A model generated the notes under the pieces. It had not been told where the DNA came from. It worked only from the letters and a program-made list of their open reading frames with translations, and ran no database searches. Positions 39,036-49,446 of a stretch of DNA of 64,000 nucleotides are shown here, piece by piece; within the stretch, counting starts at the first letter, position 1; each line of letters begins with the position of its first letter. A program made the position numbers and the translations under genes. The DNA is from Oscillibacter valericigenes (GTDB lineage: Bacteria > Bacillota > Clostridia > Oscillospirales > Oscillospiraceae), in the NCBI RefSeq assembly GCF_021531915.1, contig NZ_JAFBIV010000011.1, positions 1 through 64,000 of the forward strand, given 5' to 3'.

Positions 39036-39108
39036 TTAACGCAGGACCGCGCCCAGCTCGGAAGCCAGCAGGTCCAGGATGCTCTTCACGTCCTCGTCAG
39101 CTGCCTCC
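39036..39108 (-). pseudogene. Duplicated 3' end of pheT
   Basis: A second copy of the last 20-odd codons of pheT, with its stop (TAA at 39038-39036). It reads ADEDVKSILDLLASELGAVLR, identical in protein to the real C-terminus from Ala-Asp onward. The four nucleotide differences in that part are all synonymous (for example CGT for CGG, GGC for GGT). It has no start or ribosome binding site. It lies 191 bases downstream of the functional end, separated from it by a hairpin repeat. Confidence 0.9.
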
Positions 39109-39226
39109 CATTTGATGCAGGCATCAAATGGGGCCCCAAGGGCATTGAAATGCTCGGCGGAAATGAATTCCGCCTGCGCCAAGGTTTTGCTCCGCAAAAC
39201 GCTTGTACGCGCTGAAGCGCGCCAGC
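39109..39226 (-). repeat. Modular hairpin repeat, type I copy E1
   Basis: Starts one base after the pheT stop codon. On the minus strand four hairpins follow: GGCGCGCTTCAGCGCG; CAAGCGTTTTG/CAAAACCTTG; GGCGGAA/TTCCGCC; and CCCATTTGATG/CATCAAATGGG. The second hairpin is almost identical to those at 48180 and 49205 on the other strand. The others keep position and pairing but not sequence. Confidence 0.85.
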
Positions 39227-41917
39227 TTACCGCAAGACCGCACCCAGCTCGGAAGCCAGCAGGTCCAGGATGCTCTTCACGTCCTCATCAGCTTCCTGGG
39301 CAGTGAGGCTGCGGTCGTCAGCCCGGAGGGTCAGGTTGAAGGCCACGCTCTTCTTGCCCTCGGGGATGCCGGTGCCGGTATAGATGTCGAACAGTGCCAC
39401 ATCTTTCAGCAGGCCCTTGGCGCCCCGACGGATGCAGTCCTCCAGAGCGCCCACGGTGACGGCCTTGTCACAGACCACGGCGATATCCCGGGTGACGGCG
39501 GGGAACTTGGGCAGGGGCTGGTAGACGGGGTCCTCTCCACGGGCGGCAAACAGGGCGTTGAAGTCCAGCTCGGCGCAGTAGAAGTCCGCATCCACATCGT
39601 AATTCCGGGCCACCAGGGGATGGATCTGGCCGAACACGCCGATGCGGGTGTCGCCGCACCAGACGGTGGCGCAGCGGCCGGGATGATAAGAGGGATCGTC
39701 GCCGCAGGCCACAAAGCGGACATCCTTGGCGCGGATCTCGCCCAGAATGGCCTCAATGACGCCCTTCATGGCGAAGAAGTCCATGTCGGGACCGTAGGCG
39801 CCGATGGACAGCACCTTGTTCTCCACAGCCAGACCGTCCTCGCCGCCCAGCTGATAGGTGCGGCCGATCTCATAGAGCTTGGCGGACTTGTTGCGGAAGT
39901 TGTAGTTCCGGGTCAGGATCTCCAGCATGGAAGGCAGGACCGTAGTCCGCATGATGGAGGTGTCCTCGCCCAGGGGGTTCAGAATCTTGAAGGACTCCCG
40001 GCGGGGATCATCCGCGGCCCAGCGGATCTTGTCGTAATAGGTGGGGGAGATGAAGGAGTAGGTGATGATCTCATCGTAACCGCAGGTGCGGCACACGGAG
40101 CCCAGCAGCTGCTCCAGCTTCTGCTCGGGGGAGTAACCGCCCTGAGTGGTCTCACCGGACACCAGGGTGCAGGGGATGTTGTTGTAGCCGTGGAACCGGG
40201 CCACTTCCTCCGCCAGGTCCGCCATCCGCAGCACGTCGCCGCGCCAGGAGGGGACCGTCACCTGGTCGCCGTCCACCTGGAAGTCCAGCTTCTTCAGGAT
40301 GCGGACCATCTCGTCGGCGTCCACGTCGGTGCCCAGCAGGGCGTTGATCTTCTCAGGTTCCAGCTTCAGGACGGTGGGCTGGGGCACATAGTTGAGAATG
40401 TCGATGACGCCGTCCACCACTTCGCCGGCGCCCAGCAGTTCCACCAGCTCGCAGGCGCGGTTGACAGCGGGCAGGGTGTTGAGGATATCCAGGCCTTTCT
40501 CAAATTTGGCAGAGGCCTCGGTGCGCATACCCAGGGACAGGGCGCCCTTGCGGATGCAGGTGCCATTGAAGTTGGCGGACTCGAACACCACGTCCACGGT
40601 GTCCGCCACGATCTCGCTGTTCAGACCGCCCATGATGCCCGCCAGGCCCACGGCGCGGGTGTCGTCGGCAATGACCAGGTGGTCGTGGGTCAGCTTGCGG
40701 ACGTTGCCGTCCAGAGTGGTCAGCTCCTCGCCTTCCTCGGCGCGGCGGACGATGATCTTGCCGCCCTTCACATAGCGGTAGTCAAAGGCGTGCATGGGCT
40801 GGCCATATTCCAGCATGACGTAGTTGGTGATGTCCACGATGTTGTTGATGGGGCGGACGCCCATGGCCCGCAGCCGCTCCCGCATCCACTTGGGGGAGGG
40901 AGCGATCTTCACGTTCCGCACCATGCGGGCGGTGTACCGGGGGCACAGGTCGGCGGCGGGAGTCTCCACGTCCAGCAGTTCCATCAGGTTGCCTTCCGCG
41001 CCGCCCTTCACCACGGGCTCGTGGAGCCGCAGGTCGGCGTCAAAGGTAGCGGCGGCCTCTCGGGCCAGACCGATGATGCTCAGGCAGTCGGGGCGGTTGG
41101 GAGTGATCTCAAACTCCACCACGTGGTCATCGGCGCCGATGACGGGCTTGATGTCCTGGCCCAGGGTCAGGCCTTCCTCATGCAGGATGAAGATGCCGTC
41201 GGGGATGCAGTGGGGGAATTCGGCCTTCTCCGCGTGGAGGTCGGCCAGGGTGCAGATGGTGCCGGACTTGGTGTTAAAGGCCACCAGGTCTTCCGCATGG
41301 AGGTTCTGGCAGGGAGTGACCACCTCGGTGACGGCCTTGCCGTCATCCAGAGCGCACTTCCACAGATTGACGCCGGCGTTTTCCACAGCGGTGACCTTGG
41401 CGGCCACCACGGGACCGTAGATCTTGTGGCCCGGCTGGATGTCAGCGGGGATGGAGGGCTTCTCGGGGTCCAGAGGCTTGTAGTCTCCCAGAATGGCAGC
41501 GGCCACCACCGCGGCGTAGGGGAAGTCCCGCTCGTCCAGATTCAGCTCGTACAGGCCGCACAGCATGCCGTTGGATACCACGCCACGCAGCTTGCCCTTT
41601 TCGATCTTCTTGCCGCCGGGCAGGGTGGACTTGTGCTTGGCCACGGGGACCAGATCGCCCTCGTGGATGTTCCATGCACCGGTGCAGATCTGCAGCAGCT
41701 CCTCGCCGCCCACGTCGATCTGGCAGATCCACATGTGGTCGGAGTTGGGATGGCGCTCCAGAGAGACGATCTTGCCCACCACCACGTTGGAGATCTCGGC
41801 GCCCAGGTCCTCGGTGGTCTCCACCTTGGAGCCGGACAGGGTCATAGCCTCGGCAAATTCTTTATCATTGACCTCAACGGTGACAAATTCGTTGAGCCAT
41901 TTTCTGCTTAAATTCAT
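39227..41917 (-). CDS. pheT: Phenylalanyl-tRNA synthetase beta subunit
   Basis: An 896-residue? here 896-codon beta subunit including all usual domains. The N-terminal tRNA-binding OB domain (VVVGKIVSLERHPNSDHM), the B3/B4 editing domain, B5 (PTVLKLEPEKINALLG), the pseudo-catalytic core and the C-terminal FDX-ACB domain (PKFPAVTRDIAVVCD) are visible. It charges tRNA-Phe with PheS. AGGAGGATC precedes the ATG. It is separated from pheS by 365 bases of hairpin repeat instead of the usual few bases, and its 3' end is duplicated downstream. Confidence 0.97.
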   Translation of the reverse strand: MNLSRKWLNEFVTVEVNDKEFAEAMTLSGSKVETTEDLGAEISNVVVGKIVSLERHPNSDHMWICQIDVGGEELLQICTGAWNIHEGDLVPVAKHKSTLPGGKKIEKGKLRGVVSNGMLCGLYELNLDERDFPYAAVVAAAILGDYKPLDPEKPSIPADIQPGHKIYGPVVAAKVTAVENAGVNLWKCALDDGKAVTEVVTPCQNLHAEDLVAFNTKSGTICTLADLHAEKAEFPHCIPDGIFILHEEGLTLGQDIKPVIGADDHVVEFEITPNRPDCLSIIGLAREAAATFDADLRLHEPVVKGGAEGNLMELLDVETPAADLCPRYTARMVRNVKIAPSPKWMRERLRAMGVRPINNIVDITNYVMLEYGQPMHAFDYRYVKGGKIIVRRAEEGEELTTLDGNVRKLTHDHLVIADDTRAVGLAGIMGGLNSEIVADTVDVVFESANFNGTCIRKGALSLGMRTEASAKFEKGLDILNTLPAVNRACELVELLGAGEVVDGVIDILNYVPQPTVLKLEPEKINALLGTDVDADEMVRILKKLDFQVDGDQVTVPSWRGDVLRMADLAEEVARFHGYNNIPCTLVSGETTQGGYSPEQKLEQLLGSVCRTCGYDEIITYSFISPTYYDKIRWAADDPRRESFKILNPLGEDTSIMRTTVLPSMLEILTRNYNFRNKSAKLYEIGRTYQLGGEDGLAVENKVLSIGAYGPDMDFFAMKGVIEAILGEIRAKDVRFVACGDDPSYHPGRCATVWCGDTRIGVFGQIHPLVARNYDVDADFYCAELDFNALFAARGEDPVYQPLPKFPAVTRDIAVVCDKAVTVGALEDCIRRGAKGLLKDVALFDIYTGTGIPEGKKSVAFNLTLRADDRSLTAQEADEDVKSILDLLASELGAVLR

Positions 41918-41989
41918 AGAATGATCCTCCTATTTTGATTAGGAAAGCGAAACAAACGTCCCGCAGAATTTCCGCCTCCGACGGAAACA

Positions 41990-42280
41990 TGTCAAATTAT
42001 TTTTGTCAGGACAGAAGGTGAATTGCCGCAAAGCGGCAAGAGAGGCCGCCCTGGGGCGTGTGCCTGACAAAAATACCCCGACCCAGCCGCCTTGGGCGGC
42101 GTTCACCAGTGACCGACCCAAGAGGTCCCCGCCGAAGCCCAGCGAAGCGGATTCGGTGGGGAAAGGAAGAACAAGCGGAGCGGTGTGAGCTTTCTCCGAA
42201 GACGGAAGCGAATGAAGCGCAGCTTGCTCTGACGCGGTGGTGGGGGATTCTCAAGGGGGAGCCTGCTCCCCCTTGACCTC
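41990..42280. repeat. Modular hairpin repeat, type II copy B, between pheS and pheT
   Basis: The gap holds a long-range stem (ATTTTTGTCAGG at 41999 with CCTGACAAAAAT at 42063) around TGCCGC-AAA-GCGGCA. Then come GCCGCC/GGGCGGC near 42086, CCCCGCCGAA/TTCGGTGGGG at 42127-42161 and TCAAGGGGGAG/CTCCCCCTTGA at 42252-42277. The left and right modules match copy A at 30.9 kb. The CCCCGC...GTGGGG module matches the last hairpin of the type I repeats at 48.2 and 48.5 kb. It lies within the pheS-pheT transcript. No protein gene was found. Confidence 0.75.
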
Positions 42281-42282
42281 TG

Positions 42283-43308
42283 TCAGAACTGCTCCAGGAA
42301 CCGCACATCGTTCTCAAAGATCAGCCGCAGGTCGGCGATCTTGAAGCGGCGCATAGCGGTGCGCTCCAGGCCCATACCGAAGGCCCAGCCGGAGTAGACC
42401 TCCGGATCGATGCCGGCCATCTCCAGCACCTTGGGATGCACCATGCCGGCGCCCAGCAGCTCGATCCAGCCCTCGCCCTTGCAGGTGGGGCAGCCCACGC
42501 CGCCGCACTTGTGGCACTGGACGTCCATCTCGCAGGAGGGCTCGGTGAAGGGGAAGTGATGGGGGCGGAAACGGGTCTTGGTGCCCTCGCCGTACAGCTT
42601 TTCCACCACGGTGTTCAACGTGCCCTTCAGGTCGGCCATGGTGACGTTCTTGTCGATGACCATGCCCTCCACCTGATGGAACATGGGGGAGTGGGTGGCG
42701 TCCACCTCATCCTTGCGGTACACCCGGCCCGGGGCGATGATGCGGATGGGCAGCTCCATGGTCTCCATGGCCCGGACCTGCATGGGGCTGGTCTGGGAGC
42801 GCAGCATCACGCGGCTGTCCTCGTCGAAATAGAAGGTATCGGACCAGTCACGGGAGGGATGGCCCTCCTCGGCGTTCAGCTTGTCGAAGTTGTAGGTGGC
42901 CAGTTCCACCTCGGGGCCGTCCAGCACGGTGAAGCCCATGCCCACGAAGATGTCCTTGATTTCATCCAGAGCCAGGTACATGGGGTGCTTGTGGCCGATC
43001 TTCACTTCCTTGCCGGGGATGGTCACATCCAGGGTCTCGGCGGCCAGCTTGTCAGCCAGAGCCTTTTCCGCCAGAACAGCGGACTGGGACTCAATGGCGC
43101 TCTCCAGAGCGGCCCGGACTTCGTTGGCCATCTGGCCCATGACGGGGCGCTCCTCGGGGCTGAGCTTGCCCATCTGCTTCAGAACGGCGGTCAGCTCGCC
43201 CTTCTTGCCCAGATACTGGACCCGGACGGCGTCCAGCTCCGCTGTGGTCTGAGTGCCGTTGATGGCATCCAGCGCAGCGCTGCGAATAGCTTCCAGTTGT
43301 GCTTTCAT
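42283..43308 (-). CDS. pheS: Phenylalanyl-tRNA synthetase alpha subunit
   Basis: About 341 residues. An N-terminal coiled coil precedes the class II catalytic core. Motif 2 region FRPHHFPFTEPSCEMDVQC, a Cys-rich insertion (CHKCGGVGCPTC) and motif 3 GWAFGMGLERTAMRRF are visible. The start is placed at the ATG at 43308 (MKAQLEAI); an ATG six bases upstream sits too close to AAGGAG. The long open frame to 43581 is the T-box leader. It is the first gene of the pheS-pheT transcript. Confidence 0.97.
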   Translation of the reverse strand: MKAQLEAIRSAALDAINGTQTTAELDAVRVQYLGKKGELTAVLKQMGKLSPEERPVMGQMANEVRAALESAIESQSAVLAEKALADKLAAETLDVTIPGKEVKIGHKHPMYLALDEIKDIFVGMGFTVLDGPEVELATYNFDKLNAEEGHPSRDWSDTFYFDEDSRVMLRSQTSPMQVRAMETMELPIRIIAPGRVYRKDEVDATHSPMFHQVEGMVIDKNVTMADLKGTLNTVVEKLYGEGTKTRFRPHHFPFTEPSCEMDVQCHKCGGVGCPTCKGEGWIELLGAGMVHPKVLEMAGIDPEVYSGWAFGMGLERTAMRRFKIADLRLIFENDVRFLEQF

Positions 43309-43346
43309 AGTCATGCTCCTTATATAAATGTTCTTTTGAGGCAAAT

Positions 43347-43580
43347 AAAAAAGCCCCTCGCCCCTTGATTGGGACGAAAGGCCGGTCCTTCCGCGGTACC
43401 ACCCAAATTCACGCCGGTATGGCGTGCGCTTGAAGCCCCTGTAACGGAGGGCATCCGGCCATGTCTCCATGGCGGCTCCCGGGCGAACCAAACCGGGCGT
43501 CCGCAGTCTGGCTTGCAGCCGGTGACCAGACCTCTCTTGGCGGCGTGTCGCGGTTATTTTCCCGTTCATCGCTGATAACA
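43347..43580 (-). promoter_or_regulatory. T-box leader, phenylalanine-specific
   Basis: Read on the minus strand. The T-box GGGTGGTACCGCGG (43404-43391) is followed by a terminator with a 12-bp stem (GCCTTTCGTCCC / GGGGCGAGGGGC) and TTTTTT down to 43347. In Stem I the stretch GGTTCGCCCGGGAG places a TTC phenylalanine codon (43487-43485) at the specifier position, in line with the downstream pheS. Uncharged tRNA-Phe should promote readthrough. Confidence 0.9.
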
Positions 43581-43587
43581 ACTAACA

Positions 43588-43616
43588 TTTATACCATATA
43601 AAATAAAGAAATGCAA
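43588..43616 (-). promoter_or_regulatory. Promoter of the pheS-pheT transcript
   Basis: On the minus strand TTGCAT (43616-43611) and TATAAA (43593-43588) with a 17-bp spacer. Confidence 0.85.
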
Positions 43617-43621
43617 GAGGG

Positions 43622-43661
43622 AAAAGCCCCTTTCCCACCGAATTTCGGTGGGAAAGGGGAG
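43622..43661 (-). terminator. Terminator of the HTH membrane protein gene
   Basis: On the minus strand CCCCTTTCCCACCGAAATTCGGTGGGAAAGGGG style 15-bp stem followed by CTTTTCCC, just upstream of the pheS promoter. Confidence 0.8.
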
Positions 43662-43670
43662 GGAAATCGG

Positions 43671-44567
43671 TCAGTCCTCGCCCTTGTAGGGGTCCAGCGC
43701 CACGCTCGCCACGCCGCAGAGGATGCCGCCCACCGCGAAGACCCACCAGGCAGTGCCCCAGGTGTTCCGGGTGAGCCCCAGGCCCACGTAGATGGCAGTA
43801 GCCAGCAGCATGATGACGCCGCAGGCGGCGCCGATGAGGTTCAGCCGCTTTTTGGCCTCCGGGTCCGGGTTGTTGTCCCGGTTGTACTTCCAGATCTTGT
43901 ACTTGTCCTCCTGCATGCCGCCGTAAATGAAGGAGAATACCGCCCCGGCGATCAGCAGCAGGAAGCAGGCGGCTGCGAAGGACTCGTAGGGCTCCCGCTC
44001 CGGCAGGAAAGCAAAGGTCAGGATCAGCAGCACCAAGCCGAAGAGGATGGCACCCACACCGCCGGCGATGTACCACACGAATTTCTGATGGAAAGCATCC
44101 TTTTCCTCCTCGGTATAAAAGTCCTGGATGACGGGATGTTTTTTGCGGAAGTTGTCGTGCTGGATGCCGCCGGCCACCATGACCACCACGGAGATGGTGA
44201 GGATCAGCATAAACACCGCCGTGGACAGCATCTCGGGCAGGCCCAGAGTGTTCAGCAGGATCATCAGGGCAATACCGGCGATGATAGAAAAGACTGGCAG
44301 GGCAATCTGCAGGGTGAAGCGGTTCATGTGATCGTCATACCGGGCGGTATCGCTGACCCGGCTCTCCTCCACGCTGCCCCGCAGCAGGGTGTCCATATTG
44401 ACGTCATAGAGATCGCAGATGCGCAGCAGGGTGTCCATTTCCGGGAAGCTGGCGCCGCTCTCCCACTTGCTGACAGACTGACGGGAAACCTCCAGCTGTT
44501 CCGCCAGCTGCTCCTGGGTAACGCCTGCCTGGGCACGGATGTATTGCAGATTATTTGAAAAAGCCAT
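43671..44567 (-). CDS. XRE-family HTH regulator with membrane domain
   Basis: A 298-residue protein. The first 60 residues are an HTH_3 domain (IRAQAGVTQEQLAEQLEVSR, then QSVSKWESGASFPEMDTLL). About six hydrophobic helices follow in two groups (FTLQIALPVFSIIAGIALMI onward). A short charged cytoplasmic loop (YTEEEKDAFHQKF) lies between helices. Such HTH-membrane fusions are common in Firmicutes; their targets are mostly unknown. GGAGGTTTTTACC precedes the ATG. It is divergent from the nnr-alr cluster. Confidence 0.85.
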   Translation of the reverse strand: MAFSNNLQYIRAQAGVTQEQLAEQLEVSRQSVSKWESGASFPEMDTLLRICDLYDVNMDTLLRGSVEESRVSDTARYDDHMNRFTLQIALPVFSIIAGIALMILLNTLGLPEMLSTAVFMLILTISVVVMVAGGIQHDNFRKKHPVIQDFYTEEEKDAFHQKFVWYIAGGVGAILFGLVLLILTFAFLPEREPYESFAAACFLLLIAGAVFSFIYGGMQEDKYKIWKYNRDNNPDPEAKKRLNLIGAACGVIMLLATAIYVGLGLTRNTWGTAWWVFAVGGILCGVASVALDPYKGED

Positions 44568-44719
44568 GGTAAAAACCTCCTGTGTTTGATGGCCTCATCC
44601 TACCGGAGCAGGCGTGTCAATGCCAGCGATTTGGTGTTGCGTTTGAAGAAAATGATGTAACGTTTCGGTTGCGAAGCCTATTATACCAGGGTTTTCCGGA
44701 CTTTGGAAGAAAAATCGAA

Positions 44720-44748
44720 TTGCATTGGAGCGGTGTACCTCTTATAAT
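44720..44748 (+). promoter_or_regulatory. Promoter of the nnr-lipoprotein-alr cluster
   Basis: TTGCAT at 44720-44725 and TATAAT at 44743-44748, 17-bp spacer, 30 bases ahead of nnr. Confidence 0.85.
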
Positions 44749-44777
44749 GAGGAAAAACGACACGGGAGGCATGGACC

Positions 44778-46319
44778 ATGAAGCTGGCGACAGCCGCGCA
44801 GATGCGGGAACTGGACAGACAGGCCATCCAGGAGCGGAAGATCCCCTCCATCGACCTGATGGAGCGGGCGGCGGAAGGAGTGGCGGAAACGGCGCTGGAG
44901 CTGCTGCCCCTGCGGCCAGGGAAGTGTCGGGCGGCGGTGTTCTGCGGCTCCGGCAACAACGGTGGAGACGGCATCGCGGCGGCCCGGCTGCTGTTTTTGA
45001 AGGGCGTCCGGGTACGGGTGTTCCTGGTGGGCAGCTATGAAAAGATGACGCCAGATGCCCTGGAGGAGACCCGGCGGCTCAGCGAGTGCGGCGTGGAGCT
45101 GGAGCGGTTCGACCCGGAGGATCTGACACAGAGCACCTGGGCCAGAGGCAGCCACGTGCTGATCGACGCCGTGTTCGGCGTGGGGCTTTCCCGGGAAATT
45201 ACCCCGGACTCGGTCTATGCGGCCGCTATCCACCTGATAAACGAATGCTCCGGCGCCGTGGTGGCGGCGGATATCGCCAGCGGCGTGGAAGCGGATACCG
45301 GTCGGGTCCTGGGTTATGCGGTCGAGGCTGACAAGACCATTACCTTTACATTCAAAAAGTTGGGGCAGGCCGTTGGGAACGGCGCATTGCTGTCCGGAGA
45401 TGTGACTGTCTGGGACATCGGGATACCGGAGGACCTGCAAAACGGCATAGTCTGTGCCGCACAGACGGTGGAGCGGGACTTTGCCAAGATTGCCCTGCCG
45501 CCCCGGAAAGTGGACGGCCACAAGGGGACCTTCGGAAAGCTGCTGGTAGTAGGCGGTTCCGTGGGTTTCACCGGGGCGCCCTACCTGACAGCAACTGCTG
45601 CGGTGCGCTCCGGCTGCGGGCTGGTGTACCTGGGGGTGCCCCAGGAGATCTGGGCTGTGGAGGCCGCCAAATGTGTCTCCGCCATGCCCTTTCCGTTGGC
45701 GGATAAAAACGGCCTGTTAAGCTATAAGGCTTTACAGACTATTAAAGAAAAGCTGGCGTGCTGTGATGTGCTGGCCCTGGGGCCGGGACTGGGCCGGAGC
45801 CCTCACACAGAGCGGCTGGTGTGCGAACTGCTGGAGCGGACGGAACAGCCGGTGGTGCTGGACGCCGACGGCATAAACGCGCTGGCGGGACATATAGATG
45901 TGTTGGACCGGCGGAAGGGCCGGGTCACCATACTGACGCCCCATGACGGGGAATTTGCCCGCATCGGCGGCGATTTGTCCCATGGCGACCGTGTCCGTGC
46001 TGCCCGGGAGTTTGCGGTGCAGCATGGCTGTGTGCTGGTACTGAAGGGGCACCGGACCGTGACGGCCACACCCGAGGGGAATGTGATGGTGAACACCACG
46101 GGGAATTCCGGCCTTGCCAAGGGCGGCAGCGGCGATGTGCTGACCGGCATTATCGCGGCGCTGCTGGCCCAGGGCTGTACGGCGGCCCGGGCCGCGGCCC
46201 TGGGCGTCTGGCTCCATGGGCGGGCTGGGGACCTGGCTGCGGAGCGGCTGACGGAGTACGCCATGACGCCGGAGGATGTGATGGGTGCCCTGCTGGGTGC
46301 CTTCCGGGAACTGATATAA
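44778..46319 (+). CDS. nnr: Bifunctional NAD(P)H-hydrate repair enzyme (epimerase/dehydratase)
   Basis: A 513-residue fusion. The N-terminal YjeF_N epimerase domain spans about 1-215 (FCGSGNNGGDGIAAARLL; VLIDAVFGVGLSREI; VVAADIASGVEADTG). The C-terminal YjeF_C dehydratase domain spans about 225-505 (LLVVGGSVGFTGAPYLTATAA; LALGPGLGRSP; GGSGDVLTGIIAALLAQG). It repairs hydrated NADH/NADPH: the epimerase interconverts R and S forms and the dehydratase restores the cofactor. It leads a cluster with a lipoprotein gene and alr, the same order as in many Clostridia where acpS often precedes it. Confidence 0.95.
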   Translation: MKLATAAQMRELDRQAIQERKIPSIDLMERAAEGVAETALELLPLRPGKCRAAVFCGSGNNGGDGIAAARLLFLKGVRVRVFLVGSYEKMTPDALEETRRLSECGVELERFDPEDLTQSTWARGSHVLIDAVFGVGLSREITPDSVYAAAIHLINECSGAVVAADIASGVEADTGRVLGYAVEADKTITFTFKKLGQAVGNGALLSGDVTVWDIGIPEDLQNGIVCAAQTVERDFAKIALPPRKVDGHKGTFGKLLVVGGSVGFTGAPYLTATAAVRSGCGLVYLGVPQEIWAVEAAKCVSAMPFPLADKNGLLSYKALQTIKEKLACCDVLALGPGLGRSPHTERLVCELLERTEQPVVLDADGINALAGHIDVLDRRKGRVTILTPHDGEFARIGGDLSHGDRVRAAREFAVQHGCVLVLKGHRTVTATPEGNVMVNTTGNSGLAKGGSGDVLTGIIAALLAQGCTAARAAALGVWLHGRAGDLAAERLTEYAMTPEDVMGALLGAFRELI

Positions 46320-46341
46320 AATTATAAGGAGGAACCATTGG

Positions 46342-46944
46342 GTGCGTAAAGGAGTTTGCGTACCAACGATAGCCCTGTGCCTGCTGCTGACAGCCTGCGG
46401 CGGCGCGGGAGAGGAGCCGGCCAATAATCTGCGGGATCTGTATCATGACATGACCGGCTGTACCATGGAGGCCACGGTCACCTGCGATCAGGAGGACCTG
46501 GAGTGGGAGGCGACCCTGCGGTGCGACTATGTCCCGGAGGGGGAGACCGTGGTGGAGGTGCTGGCCCCGGAGACCATTGCCGGGGTGAAGGCGGTAGTGC
46601 GCGGATCGGACTGGCAGCTGGAGTATGAGGGAGAGCGCCTCAACGCCGGTGCCCTCAGTCAGGAGGAGATCAGCCCGGCTCTGTGCCTGCCCCGGCTGAT
46701 GGACGCCCTGCGGGACGGTTGGCTTCTGGAGGAGAATCAGGAGAAATGGAACGATATTCCCTGCCTGCGGCTCTGCGTGGACCAAACTGGCCTCCAGGAT
46801 GGCAAGATTATCTCTACCGTCTGGCTGCGGCAGGAGGATGGCACGCCTGTGCGGGGAGAGATCGCCGTGGATGGAGAAATAATTTTGACGGCGGAGTTTA
46901 CGAGTTTTGCCTTTTGTGATACAATAAAATCTCAGGAAAACTGA
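46342..46944 (+). CDS. Predicted lipoprotein, YdcC-like position
   Basis: A 200-residue secreted lipoprotein. A short signal peptide ends in LLLTACGG (lipobox). The mature part is acidic and beta-rich (TMEATVTCDQEDLEWEATLR; TVVEVLAPETIAGVKAVVRG), suggesting an outer-face binding or chaperone-like fold similar in layout to DUF4367/LolA-type proteins. I do not recognise it further. The start is GTG at 46342, nine bases after AAGGAGG. In Bacillus the lipoprotein YdcC sits in the same place directly upstream of alr, so this is probably its counterpart. Confidence 0.75.
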   Translation: MRKGVCVPTIALCLLLTACGGAGEEPANNLRDLYHDMTGCTMEATVTCDQEDLEWEATLRCDYVPEGETVVEVLAPETIAGVKAVVRGSDWQLEYEGERLNAGALSQEEISPALCLPRLMDALRDGWLLEENQEKWNDIPCLRLCVDQTGLQDGKIISTVWLRQEDGTPVRGEIAVDGEIILTAEFTSFAFCDTIKSQEN

Positions 46945-46972
46945 CGGCTGTTTCTGCGAAAGAAGGAGACCC

Positions 46973-48145
46973 ATGGAAATGGAAGATACGATCCTGCGGC
47001 GCACCTGGGCGGAGATCGACCTGGACGCGCTGGCGCATAACTATCAGCAGGCCCGGCGGCTCACCGGCCCGTCGGTGAAGTACCTGGGAGTGGTGAAAGC
47101 GGATGCCTACGGTCATGGTGCGGTCCAGGTCTCCCGGAAGCTGGAGGCTCTGGGGGCCGACTACCTGGCGGTGTCCAGCCTGGACGAGGCCCGGGAGCTG
47201 CGGCACGGCGGCATCCAGGCCCCCATCCTGATCCTGGGCCACACGCCGCCGGACATGGTGCCGGAGCTGATCCGGTACCACATTACCCAGACGGTCTCCG
47301 CAAAAGCCAAGGCGGAGGAGTACAGCGCCGCCGCCTCCGGCTGCGGCGGGACCCTGAAGGTTCACATCAAGGTGGATACCGGCATGTCACGACTGGGCTT
47401 TCTGGTGCGGGACGGCCATTTTGAAGGCGGCGTGGAGGCCATCGTCCAGTCCTGCGCCCTGCCCAATCTGGAGGCGGAGGGCATCTTCACCCACTTTGCC
47501 GTTTCTGACGAGGACGACGAGCCCAGCGAGGCCTATACCCGGCAGCAGTTTGGTGTGTTTACCCGGGTGATCGATGCCCTGAAAGAGCGGGGGATAACCT
47601 TTGCTATCCGCCATTGCGCCAACAGCGGCGCCCTGGCCCGCTATCCGGAGATGTATCTGGATATGGTGCGTCCCGGCATTGCCCTTTACGGCGCCGGGGA
47701 TGACGCGGAGCGTCTGGGGCTGCGGCCGGTGATGACCTTGAAGTCCTGCGTGTCCACCATCAAGGTCTTTGACCCCGAGACGGATATCAGCTACGGACGG
47801 ACCTTCCACACGGCAGCCCGGACCCGGGTGGGCGTGCTGCCCATCGGCTATGCGGATGGCCTGTTCCGGGGACTTTCCAACCATATTGCGGTCCAGACGG
47901 ACCAGGGTCCGGCGCCCATCCGCGGGCGCATCTGCATGGATATGACCATGGTGGATCTGACGGACAAGCCGGAGGTCCATGTGGGGGATGCCGTGGAGCT
48001 GTTCGGACCCCGCCAGAGCGTGGATGCACTGGCAAAGATCCTGGACACAATTCCCTATGAGCTGACCTGCGCGGTCAGTAAGCGGGTGCCGAGATTGTAC
48101 ATGGAGAACGGCGAAGTCGTGGAGCGAAGCCTGCGGCTGCTGTGA
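46973..48145 (+). CDS. alr: Alanine racemase
   Basis: PLP enzyme of 390 residues that makes D-alanine for peptidoglycan. The Schiff-base lysine lies in VVKADAYGHGAV. IKVDTGMSRLGF, RHCANSGALARYPE and the C-terminal catalytic Tyr segment (DISYGRTFHTAARTRVGVLPIGYADG) are typical. It is third in the cluster, 28 bases after the lipoprotein gene. The last 87 bases, including the stop, occur a second time at 48294-48380 after a hairpin repeat. Confidence 0.97.
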   Translation: MEMEDTILRRTWAEIDLDALAHNYQQARRLTGPSVKYLGVVKADAYGHGAVQVSRKLEALGADYLAVSSLDEARELRHGGIQAPILILGHTPPDMVPELIRYHITQTVSAKAKAEEYSAAASGCGGTLKVHIKVDTGMSRLGFLVRDGHFEGGVEAIVQSCALPNLEAEGIFTHFAVSDEDDEPSEAYTRQQFGVFTRVIDALKERGITFAIRHCANSGALARYPEMYLDMVRPGIALYGAGDDAERLGLRPVMTLKSCVSTIKVFDPETDISYGRTFHTAARTRVGVLPIGYADGLFRGLSNHIAVQTDQGPAPIRGRICMDMTMVDLTDKPEVHVGDAVELFGPRQSVDALAKILDTIPYELTCAVSKRVPRLYMENGEVVERSLRLL

Positions 48146-48148
48146 CAG

Positions 48149-48293
48149 CGCAGGTCAGCTCGCCGCCGCACATGCGGCGTTCAAGCGTTTTGCGAAGCAA
48201 AACCTTGAAATCGGCGGGATTCATTCCCGACGATTTGAGTGAGATCGAGGGGCCCCCGCTGTGACACAAGCGAAGCGGGTCACAGTGGGGAGA
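48149..48293 (+). repeat. Modular hairpin repeat, type I copy E2
   Basis: Directly follows alr. Four hairpins in order: GCCGC(CGC)ACATGCGGC near 48163; CAAGCGTTTTGC-GAA-GCAAAACCTTG at 48182-48207; AATCGGCGGGA/TCCCGACGATT near 48209-48237; and CCCCGCTGTGAC/GTCACAGTGGGG at 48254-48290. GATTTGAGTGAGATCGAG lies between the third and fourth. The same order is found at 48397-48535, 49109-49446 and, inverted, at 39109-39226. Confidence 0.85.
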
Positions 48294-48380
48294 CTGACCT
48301 GCGCGGTCAGCAAACGTGTGCCGAGGTTGTATATGGAGAACGGCAAGGTGGTGGAGCGGAGTCTGCGGCTGCTGTGACAG
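48294..48380 (+). pseudogene. Duplicated 3' end of alr
   Basis: An 87-base segment aligned without gaps to 48062-48148, covering the last 27 codons, the stop and CAGC. There are 10 differences, 9 of them at third codon positions; the only amino-acid change is Glu to Lys. No start or ribosome binding site is present, so it is not expressed as a protein on its own. The pattern shows that this copy evolved as coding sequence before it became separated. Confidence 0.92.
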
Positions 48381-48396
48381 CATTTCGAACGCAAAG

Positions 48397-48535
48397 CGTG
48401 AGCCGCCGCGAAAGCGGCACCAAGTGTTTTGACGGAGTCAAAACCTTGAAACAGGCGGACTTTGCCTGCCTGTTTGAGTGAAATGAAGGGGTCCCCGCTG
48501 TGTCGCTAAGACACAGTGGGGGGAAAATTGGTTCA
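48397..48535 (+). repeat. Modular hairpin repeat, type I copy E3
   Basis: Follows the displaced alr end. Hairpins: GCCGC-CGCGAAA-GCGGC; CAAGTGTTTTGAC-GGA-GTCAAAACCTTG; AAACAGGCGGA.../TGCCTGTTT; and CCCCGCTGTGTC-GCTA-GACACAGTGGGG. Compared with E2, stem bases differ on both arms so that pairing is kept (for example GCGAAGC against GACGGAGTC in the second hairpin). Confidence 0.85.
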
Positions 48536-48687
48536 CATCATCCTGTCCGCCGCATAGGATAGTGCGGGGCGGAGACGCCGGAATTTTGCGCGGAGCGTAT
48601 AAATTCCGGAACTGCGTGGGAGAATGAAAGTGGCCTCACCGAAGGTGCTTCGGTGACGGGTACTTCTTTCGGCGGAGTGTGAACTTT
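48536..48687 (+). other. Leader of mazF with three further hairpins, no antitoxin gene
   Basis: The 150 bases before mazF hold TCCGCCGCA/TGCGGGGCGGA near 48553, CCGGAATTT/AAATTCCGG at 48583-48611 and TCACCGAAG-GTG-CTTCGGTGA near 48636. No open frame of antitoxin size with a ribosome binding site occurs between alr and mazF. I could not identify a promoter with both boxes. Confidence 0.6.
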
Positions 48688-49056
48688 GTGGATACGAGTG
48701 TCAAGCGCGGTGATATTTACTATGCCGATCTCTCCCCGGTGGTGGGCAGCGAGCAGGGCGGCGTCCGGCCGGTTCTGATCATCCAGAACGACACCGGAAA
48801 CCGTTACAGCCCCACCGTGATCGCGGCGGCCATTACCTCTCAGACGGGAAAGGCCCGGCTGCCCACACATATCGACCTTCCCGTGGACCAGAGCTGCGGC
48901 CTGAGCCGGGATTCCGTGGTCCTGCTGGAGCAGGTGCGGACTCTGGACAAAAAGCGCCTGCGGGAGCGGATGGGCCATGTGGAGGAGCATGTGATGAACA
49001 AGGTGGATACAGCCATAGCGGTGAGCTTTGGGCTGCCCCACGACCAGTTGGTTTGA
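48688..49056 (+). CDS. mazF: MazF/NdoA-type mRNA interferase
   Basis: A 122-residue PemK/MazF-fold endoribonuclease. [39 protein letters not shown] and [15 protein letters not shown] closely follow the Bacillus NdoA pattern, including residues of the active site region. Bacillus NdoA cuts RNA at UACAU. The likely start is GTG at 48688, ten bases after GGCGGAG; a GTG nine bases earlier is too close to that site. Gene order alr then mazF matches Bacillus, but the antitoxin gene normally between them is missing and hairpin repeats occupy the space. Confidence 0.93.
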
Positions 49057-49061
49057 ATGAA

Positions 49062-49090
49062 TCCCCCCGGAAGGGTGACCTTCCGGGGGA
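49062..49090 (+). terminator. Hairpin after mazF
   Basis: TCCCCCCGGAAGG / CCTTCCGGGGGA with a GTGA loop, beginning 6 bases after the mazF stop. There is no T run, so termination is uncertain. Confidence 0.45.
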
Positions 49091-49108
49091 CAGCCATGGG
49101 AAATGAGC

Positions 49109-49446
49109 GGCGATTTGAGTCAAAAGAAAAGGGCTCCCGCAGGGACAGCAAAGCTGTCGCTGTGGGGCGAGGGCAGGGCCGAGCCGCCGCGGAAGCGGCG
49201 CCAAGCATTTTGCGGAGCAAAATCTTGAAATCGACGGAATTCATTTCCGGCGATTTGAGTCAAAAGAAAAGGGCTCCCGCAGGGACAGCGAAGCTGGCAC
49301 TGTGGGGCGAGGGCAGGGCCGAGCCGCCGCGGAAGCGGCGCCAAGCATTTTGCGGAGCAAAATCTTGAAATCGACGGAATTCATTTCCGGCGATTTGAGT
49401 CAAAAGAAAAGGGCTCCCGCAGGGACAGCAAAGCTGTCGCTGTGGG
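49109..49446 (+). repeat. Tandem array of 140-bp hairpin repeats (type I)
   Basis: The unit beginning CGATTTGAGTCAAAAG occurs at 49111, 49251 and 49391, an exact 140-base period. There are two full units and a partial third that runs into the ribosome binding site of the next gene. Each unit contains GCCGC-CGCGGAA-GCGGC, CAAGCATTTTGC-GGA-GCAAAATCTTG, GACGGAA/TTCCGGC and CCCGCAGGGACAGC.../GCTGTCGCTGTGGGG. The middle unit differs from its neighbours in the last stem (GCGAAGCTGGCAC for GCAAAGCTGTCGC). No open frame here is credible. Confidence 0.92.

What the first reader, a model, noticed from the sequence alone, without database searches (positions are those of the whole stretch)
39109..49446. 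A dispersed family of modular hairpin-array repeats with compensatory stem changes
Type I elements (39109-39226, 48149-48293, 48397-48535, 49109-49446) share one order: a GCCGC-type hairpin, a CAAG-TTTTG/CAAAA-CTTG hairpin, a GGCGG-type hairpin, GATTTGAGT, and a CCCCGC...GTGGGG hairpin. Between copies the stems change on both arms and still pair, for example TTTTGC-GAA-GCAAAA against TTTTGAC-GGA-GTCAAAA, and GCTGTGAC/GTCACAGT against ATTTGATG/CATCAAAT. Such covariation indicates selection on folded RNA or DNA structure. I do not recognise the family. It could be a structured RNA, a target for a REP-type nuclease, or a mobile non-coding element.
Basis: partly seen in the sequence, partly recalled or inferred. 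Interest (0 to 1): 0.85.

Follow-up and report, generated by a model that had tools for sequence, protein, structure and literature searches.

The report
Self-targeting hairpin cassettes at gene ends
Gut bacteria related to Oscillibacter carry dozens of short non-coding inserts, most of them holding a copy of the end of the gene they sit in and many also a short stretch complementary to their own insertion site, next to a string of hairpins, which suggests an undescribed kind of self-targeting mobile DNA.

Summary
The hairpin arrays are real and their stems covary. They are only part of the story. In this genome (20 copies) and across the family (89 of 300 genomes sampled) most copies examined sit between two copies of a gene end: gene body | T1 (intact end) – hairpin array – T2 (orphan copy of the same end, usually starting 0-6 nt after the last hairpin). 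T was found at 142 of 171 copies vs 4 of 168 controls. T1 and T2 differ mostly synonymously (253 vs 55, pN/pS 0.07, like functional orthologues), so T2 is not an old decaying duplication. Between T1 and the hairpins many copies hold ~14 nt antisense to the insertion site, across the junction (exact match >=9 nt: 46 of 113 vs 8 of 1114; second set 20 of 28 vs 15 of 756), starting ~78 nt from the junction. I read this as a non-coding, guide-carrying mobile cassette of ~218 bp that inserts near gene ends and restores the gene. Closest analogue: C-terminus-replacing mobile ORFs of fungal mitochondria, but without an ORF. Reverse transcriptase, Y1, IS110, TnpB and IscB genes do not track it; the machinery is unknown.

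The parts
48056..48069 (+). target site S in alr; insertion point p lies between 48061 and 48062 (GAG|CTGACCTGC)
48062..48149 (+). T1: intact alr 3' end with stop TGA at 48143-48145
   Evidence: direct repeat; codon comparison
48148..48161 (+). antisense (guide-like) segment GCGCAGGTCAGCTC, exact reverse complement of 48059-48072
48157..48293 (+). hairpin array e1: GCCGC-type, CAAG/TTTTG-CAAAA/CTTG, GGCGG-type, terminal CCCC..GGGG hairpin (to 48290) and AGA
   Evidence: CM match 48157-48279; sequence to 48293
48294..48381 (+). T2: orphan copy of the alr end, 89% identical, 9 synonymous and 1 non-synonymous change in 27 codons
48397..48521 (+). second hairpin array e2, no gene-end copy found after it
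39227..39297 (-). T1: intact pheT 3' end (TAA at 39227-39229)
39107..39226 (-). hairpin array at pheT; no convincing antisense segment here (longest match 5 nt)
   Evidence: CM match 39107-39228
39036..39106 (-). T2: orphan copy of the pheT end, 93% identical, 3 synonymous and 1 non-synonymous change in the 21 codons aligned
49108..49446 (+). tandem array downstream of mazF: remnant 49108-49166 and two full arrays 49178-49306, 49318-49446, 140-bp period, without T copies; the last one abuts the RBS of the next gene

Best explanation
The copies are a family of short non-coding mobile cassettes. One cassette (junction to junction about 218 bp, 5-95% range 186-250) is: a ~78-nt copy of the target's downstream flank (T1, usually a gene's 3' end with its stop codon, less often a gene's 5' end in antisense), a ~14-nt segment antisense to the insertion site (about -6 to +8 around p), and a conserved array of four or five hairpins. 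It sits at p, 3' of a GGR-like motif. The resident gene end is pushed downstream as T2; T1 restores the gene, so insertion near the end of an important gene is tolerated. Inferred, not shown: the antisense segment works as a guide that brings the folded strand (RNA or single-stranded DNA) to the cognate site in other alleles, so the cassette homes from strain to strain into the same site and, when repeated, stacks as T-e-T-e arrays. The machinery (a trans-acting enzyme or host recombination) is unknown.
For: T flanks: 142 of 171 copies vs 4 of 168 controls; T2 starts 0-6 nt after the model end in 138 of 142; 34 of 39 in a second set. Of 139 copies with T score >=60 a called gene runs out of T on the element's 5' side in 95, on the 3' side in 0, 44 undecided. 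Nearest upstream gene within 150 nt for the 142: sense 95, antisense 15, none 32. T1 vs T2 over 93 gene ends: 253 synonymous, 55 non-synonymous, pN/pS 0.07; between-species T1-T1 0.08; free decay of T2 expects 64% non-synonymous, seen 18%. Antisense segment; second set 20 of 28 vs 15 of 756, and 20 of 23 matches of >=7 nt span p. Spacing: 57 segments, p to segment start median 78, 55 of 57 within 69-93; nine antisense or uncalled loci alike. Covariation with the target between species: of 73 differing target positions 33 compensated, 18 kept by G:U, 22 not. GGR 5' of p. Same p in the same gene across species in 15 of 18 hand-picked gene groups. Nearest relative of an element is the same gene in another genome for 90 of 173, another gene elsewhere for 68, another gene in the same genome for 15.
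Against: No enzyme found: RVT_1, Y1, IS110, TnpB and IscB-type families are each missing, at the cut-offs used, from several high-copy genomes, and all five from this one (most are incomplete assemblies). No strain-level pair of empty and filled sites could be compared, so movement is inferred. Of 113 tested copies 67 have no exact antisense match of 9 nt, including the pheT copy in the window; at the weaker cut-off controls pass too (87 of 113 vs 88 of 558). Where the target is the same between species the segment still differs at 135 of 811 positions. T1 and T2 of alr are equally close to relatives (T1 closer 16, T2 closer 15 of 40 loci, several genomes counted twice), so which end is foreign is not shown. 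T2 is slightly less constrained between species (0.12 vs 0.08). Mismatches under the segment: 18 G:U, 13 A:C, 45 other, no clear RNA signature. Where T1 and T2 differ under the segment it matches T1 12 times, T2 4, neither 2. 29 of 171 copies have no T at the cut-off. In three of 18 gene groups, pheT among them, the junctions do not align between species. In the second set the first G of GGR is not enriched (10 of 28).
Confidence: 0.55

Rival explanations
1. Only the antisense segment plus hairpins is the element; it inserts with a roughly fixed ~78-bp target-site duplication made by two staggered cuts. T1 and T2 start identical and later become different alleles by homologous recombination between strains.
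For: Spacing near 78 nt; 23 of 142 copies have 100% identical T1/T2; a copy inside a U32 peptidase gene (L101) has a short duplication (32 nt, 91%, score 49, just under the cut-off) although T1 cannot rescue a gene end there.
Against: Needs recombination to replace T1 in most loci before T2 decays: pN/pS is 0.06-0.07 in all three identity classes. No known bacterial element is recalled to leave a ~78-bp duplication.
Confidence: 0.22
2. Replication slippage: hairpins and the pairing of site and antisense segment bring p next to the element's 3' end and polymerase jumps create and delete T-e tandem units; no mobility.
For: Tandem T-e arrays are common; junctions lie at p and the element end.
Against: Copies made inside one genome would let the non-functional ones drift, but T1-middle, T1-last and middle-last comparisons give pN/pS 0.07, 0.06, 0.08 (16, 18 and 16 comparisons; a single middle-middle pair gives 0.17); does not explain presence at many different genes.
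Confidence: 0.1
3. A cis-acting 3' UTR structure: the antisense segment pairs with the mRNA to close T1 in a long stem for stability or regulation; T2 is debris.
For: Segment-target covariation; mostly sense orientation.
Against: 15 of 110 oriented copies are antisense to the gene, at its 5' end, and antisense or uncalled loci show the same spacing; T2 begins in the middle of the paired site; T2 is constrained as coding.
Confidence: 0.08
4. T1-e is an intron-like segment removed from RNA, so that T2 is the real gene end.
For: Antisense segment spans the junction like an internal guide sequence (recalled); T2 is constrained.
Against: In L101 the insert is 186 nt (62 codons) in frame without stop inside a gene, as expected if translated; no Rfam match; copies antisense to genes exist.
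Confidence: 0.05

Closest known systems
Mobile ORFs (mORFs) of fungal mitochondrial genomes that replace gene C-termini (Glomus atp6, atp9, cox2, nad3; Allomyces atp6), PMC3630166
   Same: Inserted within the gene, bring a foreign C-terminus, leave the native C-terminus downstream; for atp6 a gene end differs from that of a close relative only synonymously (passages read).
   Different: They encode an endonuclease; here ~218 bp, non-coding, with hairpins and an antisense segment, in bacterial chromosomes, dozens per genome.
IS110 elements with bridge RNA (PMC11208160)
   Same: A structured non-coding RNA base-pairs with the target at the insertion point.
   Different: Bridge RNA uses two guides pairing with opposite strands in an internal loop (passages read); here one contiguous antisense stretch outside the hairpins, a ~78-nt flank copy, and no IS110 gene found in several high-copy genomes.
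IS200/IS605 and REP/RAYT (recalled)
   Same: Guide stretch at the foot of a hairpin, single-strand structure.
   Different: Guides of 4-5 nt, no flank copy (recalled); Y1 genes not found in eight high-copy genomes.
Home-and-rescue gene drives (engineered; PMC7968924, start of abstract in a listing only; details recalled)
   Same: Guide against an essential gene; a rescue for that gene travels with the drive.
   Different: Engineered, Cas9-based; here natural, no nuclease known.

Membership tests
MITE / IS-derived non-autonomous element | terminal inverted repeats and short target-site duplication (recalled) | tested here: not met
   Flanking repeat is a gene end of tens of nt; no common terminal inverted repeats noticed in the copies printed (looked at by eye, no dedicated search)
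REP/RAYT or IS200/IS605 | Y1 transposase in the genome | tested here: not met
   PF01797 at E<=1e-6 in 29 of 86 genomes, not in G000, G046, G057, G018, G013, G049, G050, G059
IS110 bridge-RNA element | IS110 recombinase in the genome | tested here: not met
   PF02371 at E<=1e-6 in 31 of 86 genomes, not in G000, G046, G024, G059, G004, G077, G049
TnpB/IscB guide-RNA element | TnpB or IscB gene in the genome | tested here: not met
   PF07282 in 28 of 86 and PF14239 in 4 of 86 genomes, neither in G000
Retroelement (TPRT / group II intron) | reverse transcriptase in the genome | tested here: not met
   PF00078 at E<=1e-10 in 33 of 86 genomes, not in eight genomes with 19-34 copies
Known structured RNA | Rfam match at gathering score | tested here: not met
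C-terminus-replacing homing element (mORF type) | foreign gene end upstream, native end displaced downstream | tested here: inconclusive
   Topology and synonymous divergence met; which end is foreign not resolved
C-terminus-replacing homing element (mORF type) | encodes a homing endonuclease | tested here: not met
   Unit of ~218 bp made of a gene end, the antisense segment and hairpins; too short for an endonuclease gene
RNA-guided system | guide is expressed and directs site choice | not testable with these tools
   needs RNA-seq and an insertion assay

The most novel reading that the evidence does not exclude
A natural, non-coding home-and-rescue element of bacteria: a ~218-bp cassette that finds its site by a ~14-nt programmable guide, inserts in conserved coding sequence near the ends of essential genes, replaces the gene end with its own copy and stacks up with each new allele, using an unknown enzyme.
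Probability: 0.4. Interest if true: 0.97.

Novelty: categorically new. Interest (0 to 1): 0.88.

Why it matters
If true it is a guide-carrying mobile element without any gene of its own, common in gut Oscillospiraceae, that rewrites the ends of essential genes and keeps a stacked record of past alleles. It points to an unknown programmable insertion machinery, and it explains a class of gene-end duplications that an annotator would take for junk. Even if the insertion model is wrong, the constrained orphan gene ends and the antisense segment at a set distance need an explanation.

Tried and rejected
Simple target-site duplication with neutral decay: rejected by codon pattern. Retrotransposition by a resident RVT_1 enzyme, Y1, IS110, TnpB, IscB: no co-occurrence. 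Guide in the TnpB geometry (T2 start as guide with T1 recoded against it): T1/T2 mismatches are not enriched next to p (0.028 in the first 6 nt, 0.01-0.07 further on; the low first bin is partly an alignment edge). Asking which of T1/T2 of alr is native: no answer. RNA splicing: disfavoured by L101. Recent transposition within a genome: elements in one genome at different genes are no more alike (0.687) than between genomes (0.683). G:U excess under the segment: none clear. Gene calls by longest ORF failed in this GC-rich DNA and were replaced by codon-usage calls trained on five window genes. Paper searches showed no description of this element in the titles and abstract starts listed; they are word searches of an open-licence library with capped lists, so a description elsewhere is not excluded.

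Rows left out: of 201 model hits I carried 179 into (repeats of the same place in other loci, contig-end and weak hits dropped by eye), 173 distinct, 171 with enough flank. The 113 copies are the first of each array with T score >=60 and enough sequence before p. The antisense segment was sought only between the end of T1 and the first hairpin, so its distance from p is bounded by that window. Gene groups for (18, 10 and 20 groups) were picked by hand; pairs of species are not independent, so one change can count more than once; one search used only copies with a segment score >=7. Second set: of 43 hits I carried 39 (four were the same places in L292 and L307) from other genera of the family plus three copies on two viral contigs; the 26 segments include L101 of the first set. 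The 28 elements that trained the model are also part of the first set.
Full report
WHERE. The window is contig C2 of a 2.49-Mb, 97.7% complete genome. The nearest alr relatives with titles are MAGs called uncultured Clostridia, Oscillibacter, Dysosmobacter and Oscillospiraceae.

OBSERVATION. The order is as described, and stems change on both arms and still pair. On 28 copies aligned without structure, 17 of 28 pairs show double-sided changes, covariation 0.397 vs 0.139 in shuffles and at most 0.104 with slid partners; the number of further pair types is not above shuffles. On 132 copies aligned to the model it is 26 of 28 pairs. The four Rfam matches in the window at gathering score lie elsewhere.

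GENE-END DUPLICATION. In the window the 3' ends of pheT and alr occur twice, on either side of an element. Of 171 copies from this genome, five other high-copy genomes and single loci of further ones, 142 are flanked by a direct repeat T (local alignment score >=50), against 4 of 168 mismatched pairs. T2 starts 0-6 nt after the model end in 138 of the 142, 2-4 nt in 93. Among the 139 scoring >=60 a called gene runs out of T on the element's 5' side in 95, on the 3' side in none, with 44 undecided. The nearest upstream gene within 150 nt is sense in 95, antisense in 15, absent in 32; in an antisense case such as L010 T holds the 5' end of an amino acid kinase gene. Other hosts in this genome are release factor, phosphorylase, LepA, EF-Tu, response regulator, IMPDH and IF-2 genes. 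The structure is also in single-contig genomes (G038, G163, G289), which speaks against an assembly artefact. In alr the sequence after T2 of L018 resumes the intergenic sequence found after the single gene end in species without an element (by eye).

BOTH ENDS EVOLVED AS CODING SEQUENCE. Over 93 sense gene ends (1840 codons) T1 and T2 differ by 253 synonymous and 55 non-synonymous changes; pN/pS is 0.07 overall and 0.06 in the most diverged class; 4 loci have indels. Between species T1 vs T1 gives 0.08 and T2 vs T2 0.12 in ten gene groups. If T2 had decayed freely, 64% of changes should be non-synonymous; 18% are. In arrays, T1-middle, T1-last and middle-last comparisons give 0.07, 0.06 and 0.08, one middle-middle pair 0.17. 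So the ends diverged as working alleles, presumably in different strains, and came together later. Which one is foreign could not be told for alr. The slightly higher T2 ratio fits a short time out of use.

SITE-SPECIFIC. In the same gene T2 often starts at the same place in different species: seven response-regulator loci at 64-65 nt before the end of the stop, four alr loci at 84 nt, with a second alr site at 25-27 nt in two genomes. In 15 of 18 gene groups the junctions align within 3 nt; in three they do not. Within-genome T1-T2 difference averages 6.5% (50 loci); between species T1-T1 is 20% over 58 pairs, 18% without the three unaligned pairs. Just 5' of the junction the target shows G 0.64, G 0.70, A/G 0.82 in 105 sites. 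In the second set the last two positions agree (G 21 of 28, A/G 22 of 28) but the first does not (G 10 of 28; counted).

ANTISENSE SEGMENT. Between T1 and the first hairpin many copies hold a stretch complementary to the insertion site. At alr it is 14 nt, GCGCAGGTCAGCTC, exact reverse complement of the site across the junction. Among 113 first copies the longest exact antisense match averages 8.2 nt vs 5.2 for mismatched loci; >=9 nt in 46 of 113 vs 8 of 1114; of the 65 with >=7 nt, 54 span the junction; the sense direction averages 5.3. Allowing mismatches, score >=9 in 57 of 113 vs 6 of 558, and >=7 in 87 of 113 vs 88 of 558. In those 87 complementarity is 0.79-0.89 from -3 to +4 and fades beyond -6 and +8. 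A second set chosen afterwards, from other genera and two viral contigs, gives T in 34 of 39 copies and >=9 nt in 20 of 28 vs 15 of 756.

SPACING. From junction to segment start the distance has median 78 nt; 55 of 57 lie within 69-93. It is alike in nine antisense or uncalled loci and has more spread (42-107, 26 segments including L101) in the second set. The unit from junction to junction has median 218 in 138 units.

COVARIATION WITH THE TARGET. Comparing species at the same gene, the target differs at 73 position pairs: 33 are compensated by the segment, 18 kept by G:U, 13 unpaired in one species and 9 in both. Where the target is the same, the segment differs at 135 of 811. Non-Watson-Crick positions are not biased enough to G:U to prove RNA (18 G:U, 13 A:C, 45 other).

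DISTRIBUTION. 49 of 86 genomes of the genus and 89 of 300 of the family, in 45 of 106 genera, at E<=1e-6. Elements are locus-bound: for 90 of 173 the nearest relative is the same gene in another genome, for 68 another gene in another genome, for 15 another gene in the same genome (gene clusters there are partly chained, so these counts are rough).

MECHANISM. Shown: the anatomy, the junctions, coding constraint of both ends, the antisense segment in many copies, its spacing and covariation. Inferred: the segment is a guide in trans; cassettes move between alleles; each arrival displaces the resident end. The one-sidedness follows if the target must lie in conserved coding sequence and T must restore the gene. 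A copy inside a U32 peptidase gene, in frame over 62 codons, argues for DNA insertion rather than splicing. None of the five enzyme families tested tracks the element.

COMPARISON. The topology is that of fungal mitochondrial mORFs: foreign C-terminus plus endonuclease ORF inserted, native C-terminus downstream (PMC3630166, passages read). IS110 bridge RNAs pair with the target through two guides on opposite strands (PMC11208160, passages read). The genes that define these systems are lacking in the cassette (mORF) or were not found in this genome (IS110). I call the kind new, with the mechanism open.

Noticed in passing
window 48538-49056: The mazF (ndoA) gene with its leader is more conserved between species (mostly 80-94% over 1143-1661 of the query) than the alr part next to it (about 66-84%). 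The leader 48538-48690 holds variable stem-loops such as CACCGAAGG..CTTCGGTG; a candidate structured leader without an Rfam match at gathering score.
   Followed up: partly
L197, L199, L201, L202, L203, L205, L141, L142, L143, L112: Ten T-less copies (G046, G038, G032), seven of them sharing a longer 5' part ending CTTCTGGCCGG; 8 of the 10 loci hold tRNA genes, with the element pointing at a tRNA 3' end 10-61 nt away. Seems to be a tRNA-linked subfamily.
   Followed up: partly
window 41960-42260; L012 1393-1600: Another repeat family of hairpins (..AAGGGGCCCCCGCCGAAGCCCAGCGAAGCGGGTTCGGTGGGG..) between pheT and pheS and elsewhere in this genome, sharing the terminal-hairpin style.
   Followed up: no
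L295 1261-1383 (IMG/VR contig): A viral contig carries a full cassette with a 95-bp T (98%) and a 19-nt antisense match, a possible vehicle between hosts. Two copies on another viral contig (L294) showed no T.
   Followed up: no
L144-L162 (G050): In one genome 12 of the 19 loci fetched carry two stacked units, as if a burst of insertions hit many loci.
   Followed up: partly
L101 1416-1650 (G008): A cassette in frame inside a U32 peptidase gene, duplicating the RCAQPCRLPY motif.
   Followed up: yes
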